From positions 25,879,458 to 25,943,457 of the forward strand of contig NC_091096.1 in NCBI RefSeq assembly GCF_024713975.1: 64,000 nt of DNA. Reading direction: 5' to 3'. The translations under genes were made by a program, and so were the position numbers. This DNA comes from Paralichthys olivaceus. Lineage: Eukaryota > Chordata > Actinopteri > Pleuronectiformes > Paralichthyidae. Positions 4,581-63,180 of the stretch are shown in pieces. Numbering within the stretch: the stretch's first letter is position 1; each line of letters opens with the position of its first letter. The notes beneath the pieces were generated by a model, which worked only from the letters and a program-made list of their open reading frames with translations, was not told the DNA's origin and did no database searches.

Positions 4581-4943
4581 AAATAACAATATTTACATCA
4601 TTGATGAGAATATGCAGTGGCTAATATAAATGGAGAGTTGTATCATTGTTTTTATACAAAAGAACACGTCTGACAGAGATGAAGGGAGCCGTAATGACAA
4701 TTGTAATGATAAAGATACAGTATTGCCAGTAGTATATTTGAGTAAGTATATTGTATTGTGTCAAAGCAATATGTGTGTTTAATCCACAGTCAGCTGCTGC
4801 AATCTTTCTCACTGGAATTATTGAAAACCTTCATGTCTGACAAGAAATGATCTCTTGAACATAGCGGGGCCAGCTCTTGCACCTGTTTCAGCTGTTGCTC
4901 CTCTGTTCCACATGTAGGAGCCTCTAAGGGGCCACATCACAAC

Positions 4944-6902
4944 ATGGTGAACAGCCAGGCGTCAGGCATGCCCACGGCCCCCAGGTCATGTGCAGGATGC
5001 GGAGGGAAGATCGCAGACCGCTTCCTGCTCTTCTCGATGGAGCGCTACTGGCACACTCGCTGCCTCAAGTGCTCTTGCTGCCAAGCCCAACTGGGGGACA
5101 TTGGCACCACCTGCTACAGCAAAGGGGGCATGATTCTTTGTCGAAGCGACTACATCAGGTGAGAGCAACTAAGGGGTGGTGGAGGAAGAGGAGGAGGAGA
5201 GGAAGTTGCCGGTTTTATATTTTGGAAGCTGCACAGACTGAGCAGTCAGTGTTTTTGTGTTTGCAGACTGTTCGGGCACAGCGGGGCGTGCAGCGCCTGC
5301 GGCCAGTCGATTCCAGCCAACGAAATGGTAATGAGGGCACAGGGAAATGCTTACCACCTCAAGGTAAATCCCAAGCTCTCACACCAACGCCCTTTTGTCT
5401 CCTGCTGCTTGTTTGACAGAAACGTCTGAGATTTGGTGGCAAAAGACGTCGAGATATGTCCCTTTAGTTTTAGAAGAGAAAGCAAATGTCCTCCATGTTT
5501 GTTGTTTTGTGCTGTCATTTTTAGACATAATTTAAAAAAACATTGATCAGTACCAGTTTCTCATAGCAGGTGGCACATTTTTGTTTAAATTTTTGAGAAA
5601 GGAAAAAAGGTTCACTTGAACTGATGTGATGCCCATAGTTTAAATGCTGTAAGGAGCTGAATTTGTATTTGTTTTCTCACCCTTTCTGTTTTCTCTGCTG
5701 CTCTGCAGTGTTTCAGCTGTGCCACCTGTAGAAACAGACTGATGCCTGGCGATCGCTTCCACTACATCAATGGTACAATCTTCTGTGAGCACGACAGACC
5801 CGGCGCTGCCTTGCTCAACAGCCACCTGCCTCCACTTCAGAGCAACTCTGTGCTGACAGACCAGAAGGTAAATAAAAAAGGGTTGCTGACATGACACAAC
5901 GGAGCCTTCTGAATTTACAGCAGAGTGTAAAATCTCTTACATGAATATCTCTGTGCTCTAATGTGAATAATAAAATCTGTTGATTTCCCCTTGGGGAAAA
6001 GGGGCTGCAACAGCAGGACATGGTATTAATAGGAGAAAAATCATATGCAGCAATGTGGGTAAAAATGTGATGACGGAAAAGTCGGAGGCGCTATTTTTAT
6101 AATAAGATCAAGAGTGTTTATGTTACAATGTGTCTGCTCAGGAATGGAAGGAAATTATTAAGTTGGAAAAATAAATAGAGAAAGAATAGAGGTCAATAAC
6201 TCAAGACAGAAAAATAATGTCCATACAAATTTCAGTTTGCTCAAAGCTCTGTAGCATTGTACAATTTCCGGGTACTTGACTTGAGCGTTTCCATTCCTGC
6301 TATGTTATTCTTCTACTCCGCTACATTTCTGGGGAAAAGATGTGCTTTACTCATTTAGTCATCAGTTACTCTACTCATACCTCTGTCTTCTAAATGTATG
6401 TAAGATTTAGTAAAATAAGCTCCACCTTGACCAGTTGCTACATTAAAATACAGCTTGCATTACATAAATAATAGTAATAATAATATAATAATAATTCAGT
6501 ATTATAACATAAAATAACATAAAGTGACACACACTATTCTGCTGCTTGGAAACCGAACAAAACATACCTTGAGTATGTACTTCCATAAGCTGCTTGAATT
6601 ACAATGTTGTTGATGATTAGTATTGTTATAATTTCAATAATTTTTTGCGTCATTGTATTGTATATATAGATAATCCTCAGCAGTATATTTTATTGAATTT
6701 TCCTCTTTAACCTAAAATGAAGTAAAGTAAAAGTGAAAAATATTTCAAAAGAGAATTCCTGAAAAAGAAAGAAACCACCAAAGGGAAACAGCTGTGAGGT
6801 TTTATACTCTCACAACCAGAAGGCCACACAGTTGACTGTGAGGTGTTTGTTGTTGCAGTGACCCTGACCCTGTTCCTTCTCTCTGCTCTGCAGGTTTGCT
6901 GA
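4944..6902 (+). CDS. lmo4: LIM-only transcriptional adaptor LMO4 (4 coding exons, 159 aa)
   Basis: Coding exons are 4944-5158, 5267-5363, 5709-5867 and 6894-6902. All junctions are GT-AG and the phases join to 160 codons. The protein is two tandem LIM zinc domains. LIM1 ligands are C16, C19, H37, C40, C43, C46, C66 and D69. LIM2 ligands are C80, C83, H102, C105, C108, C111, C130 and D133. The short N-terminus starts MVNSQ and the protein ends DQKVC, as in vertebrate LMO4, and the length is close to mammalian LMO4 (165 aa). The last coding exon supplies only Val, Cys and stop. Family knowledge: LMO4 has no DNA-binding domain. It bridges LDB1/CLIM and transcription factors in the nucleus during neural, neural-crest and epithelial development. 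The a or b teleost paralogue cannot be settled here. Confidence 0.96.
5868..6893 (+). other. lmo4: lmo4 intron 3
   Basis: A 1,026-bp AT-rich intron with a low-complexity TAATAA stretch around 6466-6500. No other feature was seen. It ends in a pyrimidine-rich tract and CTGCAG acceptor directly before the last 9 coding bases. Confidence 0.8.
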
Positions 6903-36419: not shown

Positions 36420-36782
36420 ACAAGGGCTCTATATTTAGCTGGTGAGGGGACTGGCTGACCCAGTCTGACTACAACACACTCACAGACACACTCCTCCGGA
36501 CCCCAAATCTCTTTTACCTGCTGGCTCTTCCCTCAGCATTGGTGTGTGTTTGTATTAGTGGAGAGGAGGTGAGTCGAAAATACTTGATTATATGATGCTG
36601 CAGTATGCATGTTAATTCCCCTCCTCCCTATACTAATGTGAATTTTTACTCCACCGTATCCCTACAGCACCATGACAGACTGAGGAGACATGGAGATTGG
36701 CTATGCTGCATGGAAATAATTCTGTCAGCTGAGGCCTAATGAGAAAAAAGCTTGGTGGTTAGTTGAGTGGTCAGAGGTGATT
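36420..36782 (+). promoter_or_regulatory. Promoter and spliced 5' leader of the Bcl-2-family gene
   Basis: A TATA-like CTATATTTAG lies near 36429-36438. A donor (GGAG/GTGAGT, exon end 36568) and an acceptor (CTACAG, next exon from 36668) predict a leader intron of 99 bp. The second leader exon contains two short upstream ORFs: ATG at 36672 (3 codons) and another ATG about 20 bases later (9 codons). Both close before the main ATG. Inferred from sequence; expression data would be needed to confirm it. Confidence 0.45.
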
Positions 36783-37856
36783 ATGTGTCAGTTGGAGGAG
36801 CCAGAGGCCACACTGGGCCTGGACAGTCCTGATCCGCTGGTGAGAGAAGCATTTCTGATGGCCTATGATTACATCGACTATGTTACCACAGGGGGGGCTG
36901 ATGGGACCATGGGTCCTGCCCCTACAGCCTGCACCGCAGCCTTGCGGCATGCAGGAGACGAGCTCCTCAACCGTTTCCCCATCTTCTTCAGACGCTGGCC
37001 TCGTGTCTTCCAGGATGTGACGGAGAACACAGCCTGCACTATGCTCATGAGCATCCTTGATGAGCACTTCTTTCTCCCTGTCCCTGGGGGGCGCCGCAGG
37101 GACCTGGCCTGGAGCGCTGTGCTGTCAGTGTATGTGCTGGCTGGCCAGATGGCTCTGCATTGCCATGAGAGGGGCATGTTGGGGGTCTTGCCCCAGCTGA
37201 AGGAGTGTGTGGGCACCTATGTACAGAGGGTCATCTGCCCTGACATACGAGACAAGGGAGGATGGGTGAGTGCTCACAAGTGAATACGAAATATTTTTCT
37301 TACTTTTAAGTAATTCAATTGATAAATAAAGTCAATAAAAATGAATGTATTACTTTTAATTCATTTGAATACACATGTATTAATATTATTAATAATTGTT
37401 ATTATTAGAAAGGTTATGTAATAACAGCTTGATAAAAAGTCCTGGTAAAAATATATGTTCAGTTTACAAATGGCCTGCATTACTTGATTAATAATCCAAC
37501 TTTGGAGGTGTACATCACCATCCTATTTCAGACAACATGCTTTTACAAATTTTGACAGAGTGGTATCAAAACTGAATTGTGCAAATTATTAAACATGTTT
37601 TTTTTTATTGGTTTATAAGATCACTTCAAATGTACTGGCAGTTTCTCCAGTCTCTCACCTCTGCATAAAACACAGCCTACTATCACTTTATAAATTATGG
37701 TGAAATCTTTTTATTTCGGTGTGACAGGATGGCTTTGTGTCACGCTTTGGGAAGAAGAAGGACTTGGAGGGTCAGGTGAAGAGAGTGTGCCGCTGGACAC
37801 TGCTGGGACTAGCCACAGGCCTCCTCACCTACCTGCTATGGAAAAGAATGACTTAG
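36783..37856 (+). CDS. Bcl-2 family apoptosis regulator, multidomain, tail-anchored (Bcl-wav/bcl2l16 or divergent Bax-like)
   Basis: Two coding exons, 36783-37265 and 37728-37856, joined GT-AG in phase 0 inside the BH2 motif, give 203 aa. I chose the ATG at 36783; a GTG two codons upstream is not needed. Visible regions: a BH4-like first helix around residues 18-34; BH3 at 54-65 (LRHAGDELLNRF, with the L-x3-G-D-E core); BH1-like at about 107-124; BH2 at 157-168 with DKGGWDGF; and a hydrophobic tail at 185-199 followed by KRMT, like Bax's WKK end. BH1 lacks the canonical NWGR: the aligned residues read DLAW. An intron within the BH2 GGW codon region is the usual Bcl-2-family position. The family acts at mitochondrial or ER membranes to permit or block outer-membrane permeabilisation. 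The fish/amphibian-specific Bcl-wav is my best guess for orthology, with a fast-evolving Bax paralogue as the alternative. Whether it promotes or prevents death cannot be read from the sequence. Confidence 0.88.
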
Positions 37857-38626: not shown

Positions 38627-41057
<2,431 letters not shown>

Positions 41058-51686: not shown

Positions 51687-53959
51687 CTATAGCAGTGTGC
51701 ATTTTTCCCCTTTGCTCTTGTCAGAACCCCCACTGGAGCTGCTGCCTTCTCCCCTCCCCTCTCCACTTCCTGTAAAAGTTAAATTTAAGCTGAATCAACA
51801 AAAACACACTGCTGCTGCTGTTGCTGCAGGGAAAAACATAGGAAAGAGTAAAACCTGCTTGATAACTGCATGAGAAGATACACATCCTTGTCTGCTTTGC
51901 AAACAGTGAGCAGAAGATAATCCTCTAATAGCAGTTGCATCAAGCACATAAAAATGCTAAATGCAAGATTTTCTTCATCAGTCCACCAACATAAAGACAA
52001 TTTGGATCCAACATAACTGGTTTGTTATGACACGATTTTCTGCTCACACCTACAATTGCCTAAAATAGAAATCCAGTTCTGCAGCATTCCGAAAACCAAA
52101 ACAGGCTTATTATGTGTCTGCAGCCTTCACATTTCTGACAATTGCGCTGGTGAACGCAGACGTCTTTTGATCTTGGTCAGTAATTAGATGCTTCGAAAAG
52201 TAGCAGTTTAAATATACTGAGTTACAAGCAAAATGACTGCATTTAAAATATATATGACTCAGAGATCATAGGTTTGTGCAGCAAAGTGTGATTAACATTT
52301 CAAAAGTAACTAGAAACTAAATCCTTTGCATAGATAGTAAATATATTACATTAATAAGACTGTATGATTGCTGTTAGTTTAGGTTTTTCTCATTCCTTTC
52401 TCTATAGCATAGTGTATTTTTATCTTTTACTTTTTTTTTTTCTTGCAGACCTTTTATCTATTTGTTTTCACTTTTTTACCTGCACTGTAAAGACTGCACT
52501 AATTTCATTGTACAATGCCACATTGGATGTACAACTGGAATCTTCAAAGTAACTATATTGAGGTCAAATACATGTAGTGTAAGAAAATTATACAATATTT
52601 AGTGGACAAAGAGTAAAACTAAGTAAGTACCAGTGGTCTAGGTTAGGTGATTTTTTTACCTTTCTGGAGGACGTTTTTCTCGAAGTATCCCGGCATGTTC
52701 ATGTTGCCAGCTGGCCAATACTGGGCGACCACATAGGCCCTTGATCCAGCAGAAGCTAAACCAACACCCAGTTTTGTGCTGTCTTTCCACACCACCTGAG
52801 TAAAATGCCCTGCGGGACGAAACACAGCGGTGTAGAGAGGAGACAAGTGTGGTGATCTGATTCTAACTTGAATCTCTCAGTGTTTTATAAAATTAATATT
52901 AGAAGTCGATATAAATGTTTACCTTTTCCACTGAAGTTAATAGATTATTACAGAAAAACATAAATCCATTATTTGTTATGGTTTAATCTTTAAGTGATAT
53001 ATATTTTACCCACACATTTTAAATCTGGCTCTATTAATGGACTCCCTATGGAACCCATCAGATGTTATGTGTTTTACCAGTTTGGCTGCCAAACCCAGGA
53101 CTGCTCCATTTGTAGTTTGTGACCTCACTGTACCAAGAATCTACAGCTTCTTTTCCTGAGAACGCACAAAAAGAACACAATATAAACAAACTACCATGAG
53201 TTGATTGAAAAAAAAAATAATAATAATGCCATTATGGCAAACATATGAAGCTGTAAGGGAAAATTACAGGGTATTGGTAAATGTTAAACATAGTGTAACA
53301 TAACACCATAGTAAGTAAAGAAGACTCGTTAAGTTACACAACTGACTAAGGAATGCCATAAAGCTTGTTAATTTCAGCCCCCATGAGCTGCTGGTTATAC
53401 TGCAGCACCAAATCCCCTGAGTGTGCTATGAGGCTTATTCATTTAGTTTTAAAATGATCAGTCAAGAAAAGTGATATTCATTATTTGAAATGTTTCAATA
53501 TCTGTGGTCATGTCAGCAGGTGAACCAAAACATTAAAGTAATGCAATGAATATGATTGTGTAATCCACCTGTCAGGGTATCGGAGCTTAACTTGGAGTAG
53601 ATGTTCTCTCCATTCTTTGTGTCGCTGTGGCTCATGAGCCCGAGAGCCAGCAAGTGATCGGCCCATTTCTGAGCTGAATCATTCAGGTCGCTGCTAAGCG
53701 TCAGTGGCGGTGCGCCATGCATTGCCCTGTACTTATTGTGAGTTTCCAGGAACTCCCTCTGAAAGCTTGCATCTGCAGAAAAAAGGCACTGATTGATGAG
53801 CTTTCAGTGCACAGAAATAAACACGTCTCGAGCAATTACTGTGGCTGGCTGTCCACACGCTTGGGTGCAGACAGGATGACTCGTGATCTGTGATGACAAA
53901 GATATTGACAGTGATGCTGTTTTCAGGTTCTTAATATTTGCTGAGCACTAACCTGCCAT
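51687..53959 (-). CDS. GLIPR2/GAPR-1-like CAP (SCP/PR-1) domain protein with C-terminal CAAX-like box (173 aa)
   Basis: Five coding exons on the - strand: 53953-53959, 53569-53772, 53078-53155, 52660-52809 and 51687-51769. Phases are consistent and all junctions are GT-AG, giving 174 codons. The CAP domain spans residues 6-145. Conserved CAP residues are visible: H51 (in SHSD), E58 (GEN), E81 (WYSEV) and H98 (GHFTQVVW), plus YWPAGN near 127-132. There is no signal peptide, as in GAPR-1, so it should be cytosolic and membrane-associated, not secreted. The start MADAS lacks the Gly2 that is myristoylated in mammalian GAPR-1. Instead, a Gly/Ser/Lys-rich tail (146-169) ends in Cys170-Thr-Leu-Leu-stop, a CAAX-like box whose final Leu favours geranylgeranylation. 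Mammalian GAPR-1 binds Golgi/lipid-raft membranes and Beclin 1. Function here is inferred by family. Confidence 0.93.
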
Positions 53960-54240
53960 TGTGTCTGTAGTTGTGAGGGCTGCAAGTGAGAACAGAACAA
54001 ATGAGGACAGGGTTAAAAGATAGAATCCAATAAATGATAACAATTATTCTGAAGGACCCCTCAGCAGGTGCTTAGGCACAATGTGGTGATGGTGGAAAAC
54101 AAAAAATCTAGTTCAGATTTCACAAACTGGAGTAATCTCTTGCACTCACCTGAGTCAGGGTGTTTTCCTGAGATCCGAGGTAATGTCCTGTGTACACACT
54201 GATCCGTCTGCTGTCTGAAAGCCAGTATTTATCCAGACGG
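53960..54240 (-). promoter_or_regulatory. 5' leader exons and promoter of the CAP-domain gene
   Basis: The ATG exon begins after an acceptor (CTTGCAG on -, exon edge 53979). An upstream leader exon ends at 54150 with a good donor (CTCAG/GTGAGT). A TATA-like GATAAATACTG on - lies near 54222-54232, placing the start near 54195-54200. No upstream ATG is apparent in the last leader exon. Confidence 0.5.
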
Positions 54241-59656: not shown

Positions 59657-59879
59657 CCCATGTTGAAATCCAAAAGCGAATTTCAGAGGAAATCGTCCTG
59701 CAAAGCCAGTTGCGCTTGCAGTCTCAGTCTGTACAGCAGAAAAAGCTGAGGCAATAGCTGCAGTTCAGTTTCATACTAAGCCTATTGAGACTGTTAACCC
59801 TTGTGTTCTGGCGGTTGTTGGGTTAGCGAATGAACCTGACTTGACAGTTGACCCAGGATACCATCCATTTGTCTCCAAT

Positions 59880-60563
59880 GGGTCTGTGTCCTTGGAGGGA
59901 AATGATAAAAAAGTGCCGGTCAACATTCTTAGAGATTCAGGTGCTTTGGGATCTTTCATTTTAGAGTCTGTGTTGCCATTTTCCTCAGACAGTGACACTT
60001 GAGGTTGGATGATAGTCAGGGGTATGGGTCTTAAGGTTTTGACTGTCCCTGTACATAATGTCAACCTGTCTTCAAATCTGGTGAAAGGTGAAGTTCCACT
60101 GAGTGTGTGTCCTGAGTTGCCTGTGGAGGGAATACAGGTAGTTTTAGGCAATGACTTGGTTGGTGCACGTGTGTGGAGTGATTTGCCTCTTCCCCCTCTA
60201 GTTGCTTTAACTCCTTCTGTTGGTGATGGAAGCCTTGGGAGACCAACAAAGTCATCGGTTGGTTCAGCCTGTGTGGTCACCAGGGCCCAAAGCCGTACTG
60301 ATTCTCATGCTGAAAAGTGGGTTACGGAGAAAATCCAAAAATCAAAAGTGTGTTTTCCATTACCTGACTGTTTGCTATCTGTTACTCGCAGTGAGTTAAT
60401 ACAGGAGCAGGGAGAGGAATTCTCCCTGAAAGAACTGTTCCAGCAGGTCGGTCCATCTGATGAGTTGGAGATTGCTGTTCCAGAGTACTTCCTTGAGGAC
60501 GGTTTGTTGGTGAGAAAGTGGGTTCCTCAGAGTGACAGTTATGTGGTGGATGCCATTTTTTAA
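59880..60563 (+). pseudogene. Retroelement protease and linker region
   Basis: A DSG triad at 59934-59942 in the context ILRDSGA is the likely aspartic protease active site. A TGA at 60000-60002 interrupts the frame, which then continues to 60563 without family-specific motifs. This part lies between protease and integrase. Confidence 0.6.
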
Positions 60564-60579
60564 AGTTGTAGTTCCGACC

Positions 60580-61361
60580 AAACTAAGACCTAAAATTTTG
60601 CGTACAGCTCATAATACAGCAGGACATTTAGGGGTTAAGAAAACGTACAACTTCTACTGGCCAAGGCTAAAAAGAGACATCTTTGCTTATGTCAAAACCT
60701 GCCATACGTGTCAAATTACAAGCCTTATCAGTGCATAAAGCCTGCACCTTTGTGTCCTGTATCAGCAGCCAGTCAACCTTTCGAGCTTATTGATTGTGTT
60801 GGCCCGTTACCCAAGTCTAAGGCTGGTAGTATGTATTTGTTAACTGTGATGTGTTTAAGTACACGCTACCCTGCAGCTTATCCATTGTGTAACATCACAA
60901 CAAAGTCTGTTGTGAAAGCATTGTCCCAGTTCATTTCAGTCTTTGGCATTCCGAAGGTTATTCAAAGTGATCAAGGAACAAATTTCACTTCAAACATGTT
61001 TTCGGAAATTCTAAAACAACTACATTTCAGACATGCCCAATCTACTCCTTATCATCCTCAAAGCCAGGGAGCTATTGAGTGTTTCCACCAGACCCTAAAA
61101 TCCCTGTTACGTTCTAATTGTACAGAACTTAACCGTTACTGGGAAGAGGGGTTGCCTTGGTTTATGCTGGCTGCAAGAGAGGTTACTCAAGAAAGTACTG
61201 GGTTTAGCCCAAATGATCTTGTGTTTGGGCATACTGTACGTGGTCAACTTGCTGTCCTACAGGGTGATTGGAAGAAAACTTCTCCACCAACAAACTTGAT
61301 TGACTACATGAATGGTTTCAGAAGGCGATTGAATGTAGCTGGTAAAAAAGGCGAAAATTAA
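60580..61361 (+). pseudogene. Retroelement integrase
   Basis: The N-terminal HHCC finger (H-x4-H at 60610-60627; C-x2-C at 60700-60711) is in one frame. The catalytic core follows in another, with D at 60792-60794, D at 60969-60971 and E at 61077-61079; the last two are separated by 35 residues (DD35E). The frame break between finger and core makes it non-functional. Confidence 0.85.
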
Positions 61362-61744
61362 CCTTGTGAAATCTCAGAAAAATGAAAAAAATTATTTGAC
61401 CGTAGGACAGAAAAGCGGGGTTTTGCTCCAGGGGATCACGTATTGGCGCTTGGCTGTAATTCTTAGGAAAGTTTCTGATCAGAACTATGTCTACCCCAGA
61501 TCCACCTCACCCCAACGAGAAAAATGCAACTGTATCATGTAAATCTGTTGAAAGCTTATTACTTGCCTTCTTCTGTGGGCCCTTCTACAGGGGAAGGGAG
61601 ACCTGTGGTAGTGGCAGCTCCCATGGGAGATTTGTGCCAAATGCCTTTGCTGGTAGAGGGTAAGAAAGATGATGTAAATACCCCCGATGATTGCGTCATG
61701 CAGGGCCGACTTAAGAACTCTGAGTCCCTCAGTAAATTGGACAG

Positions 61745-62460
61745 TTGCAGTTGAGTAAGCTGATATTGTCTTTCCCTTCCTTGTTTTCAGATACTCCTTC
61801 GCGTACTCACCTGATCAAACATGATATTGATATTGGAGATGAAAAACCTATTCGGCAACGGTTCTATCGTGCTTCACCAGAAAAATGTGACCAGCTGGAA
61901 TCACAAGTGAGGTTGGACATGGTCTTGCAGTTCCATCAGATTCAAGCTGGGCGTCGCCATTTTTGTTGGTGACTAAACCAGACCATACTTTTAGGCCGTG
62001 TACTGACTTTCGCAAGGTTAACAAGATCACCAAACCAGACTCTTTTCCGTTGCCCCGAATGGATGATTGTGTCGATCAAGTTGGTTCTGCAAAATTTGTC
62101 AGTAGATTTGACCTTTTGAAGGGTTACTGGCAAGTGCCTTTGTCCAAACGTGCTCAGGCCATTGCCTCGTTCATAACTCCTTCGGACCTTTACTCATACA
62201 AAGTAATGCCATTTGGTCTACGAAACGCACCTGCCACTTTTCAAAGATTAATGAATAGAGTGGTTGCAGGTTTGGATGGCTGCGCGGTATATTTAGATGA
62301 TGTTTTCATCTACAGTGACACTTGGGAACAACATTTACCGTGCGTCAAAGCACTATTTGACAGACTTGCATGGGCCAATCTGACAGTGAAGTTGGCCAAG
62401 TGTGAGTTCGCCAGGGCTACCGTGACTTACTTGGGTAAGGTAGTGGAGGCAACAGGAACG
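61745..62460 (+). pseudogene. Retroelement reverse transcriptase (truncated)
   Basis: The first part (61745-61972) and the palm region (from 61963) are in different frames. The palm shows FRPCTDFRKVNK, SRFDLLKGYWQVPL, MPFGLRNAPATFQR and the catalytic YLDD at 62290-62301. Similarity stops near 62455 at a YLGKVV motif, just before RNase H would begin, at the junction with the Tc1-like sequence. Confidence 0.9.
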
Positions 62461-62464
62461 ACAG

Positions 62465-63180
62465 CAACAGGTAACAGGAGGCATTTCTTTGGAAGGCCGC
62501 ACAGCCCTCCATGTGCTAGCCAGAGGTACCCTGACTGCCATTAGGTACCAGGATGAGATCCTCAGACCCATTGTAAGGCCATATGCTGGTGCAGTGGGCC
62601 CTGGGTTCCTTCTCATGCATGACAATGCTGGGCCTCATGTGGCTGGATTGTGTCAGCAGTTCCTGCATGATGAAGGCATTGATGCTATGGACTAGCCTGC
62701 CCATTCCCCAGACCTGAATCCAATCGAGCACATCTGGGACATCATGTCTTGTTCCATTCACCAACACCACGTCGCACCACAGACTGTCCAGGAGTTGACT
62801 GATGCTTTGATCCAAGTCTAGGAGGTGATCCCTCAGGAGAACATCCGTCTTCTCATCAGGAGCATGCCCAGGCATTGTATGGAGTGCATACAGGCACGTG
62901 GAGGCCACACACACTACTGAGCCTCATTTTAACTTTTGTTGAGGAATTTCCACAGAAGTTGGATCCAGCCTGTTATCTGATTTTTCCACTTATTTTTGAG
63001 TATGATTCTGAATCCAGACCTCCATGGGATAATGATTTTGATTTCCATTGATCATTCTTATTTTATTTTGTTCTCAACGCATTTCACTATGTAATGAATA
63101 AAGATTTTCAACTGGAATATTTCATTCATTGAGATCTAGGATGTGTTGTTTAAGTGTTCCCTTTATATTTTTGAGCAGTG
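62465..63180 (+). mobile_element. 3' half of a Tc1-like DNA transposon with broken transposase
   Basis: Transposase similarity begins mid-protein (TGGISLEGRTALHVLARG at 62474-62527). It includes the second catalytic D at 62621-62623 and E at 62726-62728, 34 residues apart (DD34E). Two in-frame TAG stops (62693-62695 and 62819-62821) replace conserved tryptophan-type positions. The 3' UTR and a terminal GTTCCCTTTATATTTTTGAG end at 63180, typical of fish Tc1 elements. The 5' inverted repeat and N-terminal DNA-binding half are absent. Confidence 0.9.

What the first reader, a model, noticed from the sequence alone, without database searches (positions are those of the whole stretch)
51687..53959. 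CAP-domain protein that appears to have swapped an N-terminal lipid anchor for a C-terminal prenyl anchor
The assembled protein is GAPR-1-like and keeps the CAP histidines and glutamates. It begins MADAS instead of Met-Gly and ends in Cys-Thr-Leu-Leu after a Gly/Ser/Lys-rich spacer of about 24 residues that mammalian GAPR-1 does not have. Established: mammalian GAPR-1 is N-myristoylated at Gly2, and CAAX boxes ending in Leu are geranylgeranyltransferase-I substrates. Inference: membrane attachment has moved from one end of the protein to the other, which would flip the domain's orientation on the membrane.
Basis: partly seen in the sequence, partly recalled or inferred. Interest (0 to 1): 0.75.

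Follow-up and report, generated by a model that had tools for sequence, protein, structure and literature searches.

The report
Fish GAPR-1 paralogue with prenyl tail
A flounder gene makes a small CAP-domain protein that lacks the N-terminal lipid signal of its mammalian cousin GAPR-1 and instead ends in a prenylation signal, carried on its own last exon and shared by many bony fishes; whether the lipid is really attached has not been tested.

Summary
Five coding exons on the minus strand (53959-51687) encode a 173-residue CAP protein, MADAS...KCTLL, identical to a Paralichthys olivaceus database protein. The CaaX end recurs in 32 of 138 listed relatives (X = Leu 25, Gln 4, Phe 2, Met 1), from Arapaima, Megalops and eels to salmon, cod, gobies, icefish and flatfish. 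None of the 32 starts Met-Gly. In 17 of them the linker has 22% pairwise identity. Cys170 is the flounder protein's only cysteine, and the last-exon tail is predicted disordered.

The evolutionary reading needs correcting. This is a paralogue, not the orthologue of mammalian GAPR-1: teleosts, a flatfish among them, also keep a Met-Gly orthologue in a separate clade (100/100), and joining the two teleost groups is rejected (AU p 0.003). So two old paralogues carry different ends. A flipped orientation is not supported.

Against a constitutive prenyl anchor: 80 of the 138 rows end within six residues of the CAP domain's NV, and 0 of 17 Otocephala rows have the box. The last exon looks optional. 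Prenylation itself is inferred.

The parts
54150..54200 (-). Probable non-coding 5' exon; the 3' edge (54150) has a strong donor, the 5' edge is a guess from a TATA-like stretch at 54234-54222
   Evidence: CAG|GTGAGTG donor and TATA-like stretch located; no in-frame ATG upstream of the MAD start in the joined frame. No transcript evidence.
53953..53979 (-). First coding exon: acceptor at 53980, start codon at 53959, coding part ATGGCAG (Met-Ala plus one base, phase 1)
53569..53772 (-). CAP domain, coding exon 2
   Evidence: GT-AG splice sites and frame; Pfam CAP 11-127
53078..53155 (-). CAP domain, coding exon 3
52660..52809 (-). CAP domain, coding exon 4, ends in NVLQK plus one base (phase 1)
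51687..51769 (-). Last coding exon: Gly/Ser/Lys-rich linker and CaaX box CTLL, then stop
   Evidence: in the identical database protein P0002; pLDDT under 50 for residues 147-173
51687..51701 (-). CaaX box Cys170-Thr-Leu-Leu and stop codon

Best explanation
The window holds a teleost GAPR-1-like paralogue: a CAP-domain protein with no N-myristoylation site, whose last exon encodes a flexible, lysine-containing linker and a CaaX box. Most likely the transcript with the last exon yields a protein that is prenylated on Cys170 (probably geranylgeranylated in flounder, since X = Leu), then trimmed and methylated, and so tethered by its C terminus to a cytosolic membrane face. There the CAP domain would hold partner proteins or lipids, much as GAPR-1 does from its N-terminal anchor. 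In many relatives another 3' end gives a form without the box, so the last exon probably decides between a membrane-bound and a soluble form. Shown: gene structure, fold family, recurrence of the box, absence of Gly2, separate clade, existence of records with short ends. Inferred: prenylation, membrane, partner binding, the splice switch.
For: 32 of 138 listed window-clade relatives end C-a-a-[L/Q/F/M]. Tails run from 24 to 65 residues after NV, yet the Cys stays fourth from the end. In 17 of the 32 (chosen for having the Cys) linker identity is 22%, against 49%, 68% and 60% at a1, a2 and X and 67% in the CAP part. The tail is predicted disordered. Three Lys lie at -1 to -7; PMC1175975 (passages) says substrates need a small, flexible, hydrophilic linker of about 11 residues, GGT1 prefers X = Leu or Met and has more lysines at -1 to -7. 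No N-terminal Gly in 32 of 32. Sole cysteine is Cys170. Membrane attachment matters in the sister protein: GLIPR-2 without its myristoylation site had no effect on EMT markers, ERK or migration in HK-2 cells (PMC3596275, passages). For the switch: of 80 short rows, 52 have a four-residue tail after NV, and all 52 end in Ala, Glu, Val or Asp, residues whose codons begin with G, as expected of a phase-1 junction followed by two bases and a stop.
Against: No labelling, transcript or localisation data. 80 of 138 rows are short and 24 end otherwise; 0 of 17 Otocephala rows have the box (my assignment by genus name, several are partial or fused models). Two CaaX rows end C-T-P-F, an unusual box. Gadus, Champsocephalus, Dunckerocampus and Entelurus end in Gln, which points to farnesylation there and not geranylgeranylation. 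Diretmus P0046 is modelled with a hydrophobic N-terminal stretch, which if real would not suit a cytosolic protein. In the flounder DNA no clear short last exon was found. No gene was seen carrying both ends.
Confidence: 0.8

Rival explanations
1. The box is real and under selection, but the main product in flounder tissues is a form without it, so the protein works mainly in the cytosol and the prenylated form is minor.
For: 80 of 138 listed rows are short; 15 of 20 short rows with an isoform label are called isoform 2, and 11 of 14 labelled CaaX rows isoform X1 (my reading of the names), which fits two ends of one gene.
Against: The only flounder protein listed has the box. NCBI numbering need not reflect abundance. 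No short exon of the usual form was found in the flounder DNA.
Confidence: 0.12
2. The C-terminal cysteine serves another purpose, such as palmitoylation or metal or redox chemistry, and the likeness to CaaX is incidental.
For: 8 of 32 rows have Cys-Cys before a-a-X, which would allow palmitoylation beside or instead of a prenyl group.
Against: The Cys stays exactly fourth from the end although tails vary from 24 to 65 residues after NV, and X is limited to L, Q, F, M. The position is partly by selection, since rows were called CaaX for Cys at -4; but among the other 104 non-insect rows only P0030 has Cys there, inside the CAP end.
Confidence: 0.06
3. The last exon is a gene-model artefact and CTLL is chance.
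Against: The same exon and box are in the identical database protein and in 31 further listed rows across distant teleosts.
Confidence: 0.02

Closest known systems
GAPR-1 / GLIPR2 (mammalian and teleost Met-Gly orthologues)
   Same: CAP fold (1smb best, TM 0.69 by query length, 46% identity); the CAP His, Glu and Asn residues kept; no long secreted-type extensions in the flounder protein; a likely membrane tether at one end.
   Different: No Gly2, no Cys32 or Cys63, about 27 extra residues with a CaaX box, separate clade.
CaaX proteins with a divergent linker, such as Ras and Rho GTPases (recalled; linker rules from PMC1175975, passages)
   Same: Folded domain, variable hydrophilic linker, conserved CaaX end.
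   Different: Not a GTPase; processing not shown.
SmVAL6 of Schistosoma, a group 2 CAP protein (PMC7957364, passages)
   Same: GAPR-1-like CAP domain with a C-terminal extension, cytoplasmic, lipid anchoring predicted.
   Different: 73-residue extension and predicted palmitoylation; no prenyl mentioned in the text as searched.
Yeast Pry1 CAP domain (5jys, 5ete)
   Same: Same fold.
   Different: Secreted in yeast (recalled); no CaaX box compared here.

Membership tests
CAP superfamily | CAP domain above Pfam cut-off | tested here: met
   PF00188 83.4 bits against a cut-off of 21.1
GAPR-1 / GLIPR2 orthologues | N-terminal Met-Gly for myristoylation | tested here: not met
   Begins MADAS; Gly2 has no counterpart
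GAPR-1 / GLIPR2 orthologues | Falls in the clade of mammalian GLIPR2 | tested here: not met
   Outside a 100/100 clade that holds the Met-Gly rows; AU tests p 0.003 and 4e-5
GAPR-1 / GLIPR2 orthologues | CAP His/Glu residues (His54, Glu65, Glu86, His103) | tested here: met
   His51, Glu58, Glu81, His98
GAPR-1 / GLIPR2 orthologues | Golgi membrane location, Beclin 1 binding | not testable with these tools
   Known for GAPR-1 (PMC6803662, passages)
CaaX-prenylated proteins | Cys fourth from the end, aliphatic a2, permitted X | tested here: met
   CTLL
CaaX-prenylated proteins | Flexible hydrophilic linker before the Cys | tested here: met
   pLDDT under 50 for 147-173; Gly/Ser/Lys-rich. No prenylation predictor was run.
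CaaX-prenylated proteins | Box conserved in orthologues | tested here: met
   32 of 138 listed rows; the remainder are short (80), other (24) or insect (2), so conserved in distant lineages but not in every record
CaaX-prenylated proteins | Covalent prenyl group on the Cys | not testable with these tools
   Needs labelling or mass spectrometry

The most novel reading that the evidence does not exclude
Lipid anchoring of GAPR-1-like proteins is modular and exon-encoded. An old paralogue carries its anchor on a separate last exon that splicing can include (prenylated, membrane-bound) or replace (soluble), while the first exon of the sister family carries the myristoyl site. Lineages then retune the ends: cod, an icefish and pipefishes have X = Gln and seahorse and another syngnathid X = Phe in place of Leu, which may change the prenyl group; seven goby-like rows and one Platichthys row add a second Cys; and an eel relative (P0125) lacks the box but begins MGQLC, a likely acylation start. 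It would be a CAP protein whose membrane attachment is set by splicing.
Probability: 0.45. Interest if true: 0.65.

Novelty: new variant of a known kind. Interest (0 to 1): 0.5.

Why it matters
GLIPR-2 without its myristoylation site had no effect in a human cell assay in which the normal protein did (PMC3596275, passages), so the anchor seems to matter for this kind of protein. A natural paralogue with the anchor at the other end, perhaps switched by splicing, gives a ready test of whether the position, the lipid or mere membrane contact is needed. It also warns that 'GAPR-1' in fish papers can mean either of two old paralogues with different membrane chemistry.

Tried and rejected
Orthologue-level anchor swap: rejected by the tree and the AU tests.

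Chance CaaX: made unlikely by recurrence. Two rows with Cys at -4 were not counted as CaaX: P0030 (NVCPLA, the Cys belongs to the CAP end) and P0249 (a Met-Gly protein ending CLRS).

Tandem copies in the window: none found with five protein queries.

Alternative short last exon in flounder: two and three weak acceptor candidates under two filters, none giving the usual one-residue end; undecided.

Alternative Met-Gly first exon upstream: one weak candidate at 61624, in the retroelement region; dismissed.

Rows left out: 68 of 258 retrieved proteins were put in the first tree, 26 of the 32 CaaX rows among them. Paramormyrops P0106 was taken out before the AU tests for its long branch, so these used 67 rows. 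17 of 32 CaaX rows went into the linker comparison and 35 proteins into the structure alignment.

Papers: GLIPR2 + prenyl gave 4 papers, judged unrelated from the listing. GAPR-1 + CAAX gave one, in which the GAPR-1 mention is a table row. GAPR-1 + prenylat gave none. CAP superfamily + prenylat gave one review on ergosterol, listing only. Searches were read as listings, apart from the papers named elsewhere in this report. PMC7554809 was searched for passages and held no mention of myristoylation; PMC12561119 held no mention of the gene. Most subscription journals are not in the library.

The single-sequence structure was poor (mean pLDDT 40.4) and was not used.

Full report
What is there. The minus-strand gene was rebuilt exon by exon. 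Coding parts are 53959-53953, 53772-53569, 53155-53078, 52809-52660 and 51769-51687, all introns GT-AG, giving 173 residues that begin MADAS and end KCTLL. [quoted passage not shown] The window is therefore most likely from that fish, and the last exon is in a public gene model. Pfam CAP is clear. Human GAPR-1 is the closest solved chain by sequence and by fold (1smb, E 4.9e-15, TM 0.69 by query length). Residues aligned with GAPR-1 His17, His54, Glu65, Glu86, Gly102, His103 and Asn138 are kept; Gly2, Cys32 and Cys63 are not; the sole cysteine is Cys170.

Is the box more than chance? The two window-clade searches listed 138 different proteins (each shows only its best 120, of 613 and 1463 hits). 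In one search, 32 of 138 end in a CaaX-like box, 80 end within six residues after the NV of the CAP end, 24 end otherwise (many look like models that read into the intron, or fused models) and 2 are insects. X is Leu in 25, Gln in 4, Phe in 2 and Met in 1. The 32 include Arapaima, Megalops, Conger, Anguilla rostrata, Oncorhynchus and Salmo, Gadus, Centroberyx, Lates, Morone, icefishes, gobies, syngnathids and flatfishes (names). None of the 32 starts Met-Gly. In 17 of them, aligned, the linker averages 22% pairwise identity, while a1, a2 and X keep 49%, 68% and 60% and the CAP part 67%. The Cys is invariant there by choice of rows. A fast-evolving linker with a fixed terminal box is what a working CaaX signal shows.

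Does the tail look like a substrate? According to PMC1175975 (passages read), substrates need a small, flexible, hydrophilic linker of about 11 residues; GGT1 prefers X = Leu or Met and has more lysines at -1 to -7; boxes ending in Leu can also be farnesylated. The flounder tail, with three Lys at -1 to -7 before CTLL, fits. The AlphaFold model built on 35 sequences gives pLDDT under 50 for residues 147-173, which is the part encoded by the last exon (codon 147 is split by the junction). No prenylation predictor was run. The model is weaker in its middle (blocks of 60 to 76 at residues 81-110), so the fold match rests on the family as much as on the model.

Orthologue or paralogue? A search with human GLIPR2 listed 120 of 310 hits; 71 of the 120 start Met-Gly and 76 contain the MGKS-type start, the others being alternative, extended or partial N-terminal models as far as I can tell. 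They include sharks, gar, bichir, paddlefish, coelacanth, tetrapods and many teleosts, among them the flatfish Platichthys flesus (P0211), which also has a CaaX protein (P0007) on a contig of another length. In a tree of 68 chosen rows the Met-Gly proteins form one clade at 100/100, apart from all window-clade rows. Holding the window clade together with the eight teleost Met-Gly rows lowers the log-likelihood by 42 (p-AU 0.003), and with gar, bichir and paddlefish added by 46 (p-AU 4e-5). Long branches are in play, as the tool warns. So the duplication is probably older than teleosts. Window-clade proteins of gar, sharks or tetrapods were not seen, but the lists are cut at 120.

How the ends are encoded. 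In the window the first coding exon gives only Met-Ala and one base. In mammalian, bird and reptile records, alternative N-termini diverge just before A/S/T/P-SKQF, which implies a phase-1 intron at the matching place. So the N-terminal anchor of the sister family and the C-terminal box here each sit on a separate exon. Of the 80 short rows, 52 have a four-residue tail after NV, and all 52 end in Ala, Glu, Val or Asp: codons beginning with G, as a phase-1 junction followed by two bases and a stop would give. Isoform labels run 11 of 14 X1 among labelled CaaX rows and 15 of 20 isoform 2 among labelled short rows (my reading of names). This suggests alternative last exons. But no gene was seen with both ends, some short rows may be separate tandem genes (Platichthys has P0007 and P0011 on a contig of one length), and the flounder DNA shows no clear short exon. 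All 17 rows that I assign to Otocephala lack the box, so zebrafish may not be the fish in which to test it.

Function. GAPR-1 sits at the cytosolic leaflet of the Golgi, dimerises, and inhibits autophagy by anchoring Beclin 1 to the membrane (PMC6803662, passages). PMC7957364 (passages) says that its membrane interaction is facilitated by myristoylation. GLIPR-2 without its myristoylation site had no effect on EMT markers, phospho-ERK or migration in HK-2 cells (PMC3596275, passages). By analogy the flounder protein should need a tether, and CaaX would supply it. A zebrafish gene, im:7150988, described as GAPR-1 and listed as expressed in presumptive epidermis, fell 7.9-fold in yap1;wwtr1 mutants (PMC5773182, passages); the same gene name is attached to window-clade proteins of stickleback, Sphaeramia and Amphiprion. 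That points to epithelia as the first place to look. The flip in orientation is not supported, since a tether of about 27 disordered residues does not hold a domain in one pose.

Verdict. It is a new variant of a known kind: an old GAPR-1 paralogue with a recurrent, exon-encoded and probably optional prenylation signal. I found no paper that mentions it in searches.

Noticed in passing
P0007, P0068, P0070, P0074, P0078, P0082, P0083, P0085: Eight CaaX rows end Cys-Cys-a-a-X, one from Platichthys and seven goby or goby-like rows, some unnamed; a second lipid beside the prenyl group is possible.
   Followed up: no
P0125 (Anguilla anguilla): A window-clade protein that begins MGQLC and ends LPAVG without a CaaX box: the N-terminal type of anchor may have arisen again in this clade.
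   Followed up: partly
P0046 (Diretmus argenteus): CaaX protein modelled with a long, hydrophobic N-terminal extension upstream of MADQSF; probably a gene-model error, but it would change the topology if real.
   Followed up: no
window 54150-54220 and 53953-53979, minus strand: The spliced 5' frame reads GKHPDSALTTTDTMADAS without an upstream ATG, and the swordfish model P0020 has GKHPDSAFITKDTMADAS; the 5' UTR seems conserved and some database proteins extend into it.
   Followed up: partly
window 36720-37283, plus strand: ORF with a Bcl-2 family domain, E 5.9e-16.
   Followed up: no
window 38627-39751, minus strand: Large exon of a tubulin gene (Pfam Tubulin and Tubulin_C).
   Followed up: no
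window 4851-5162, plus strand: LIM domain exon.
   Followed up: no
window about 59700-62550: Retrotransposon remains: integrase core domain at 60639-61361 and a reverse-transcriptase-like ORF at 61891-62544 (by eye).
   Followed up: no
P0001, P0004, P0006 and others: Several teleost records of 250-300 aa appear to hold two CAP domains in one chain (lengths), perhaps tandem genes merged by prediction.
   Followed up: no
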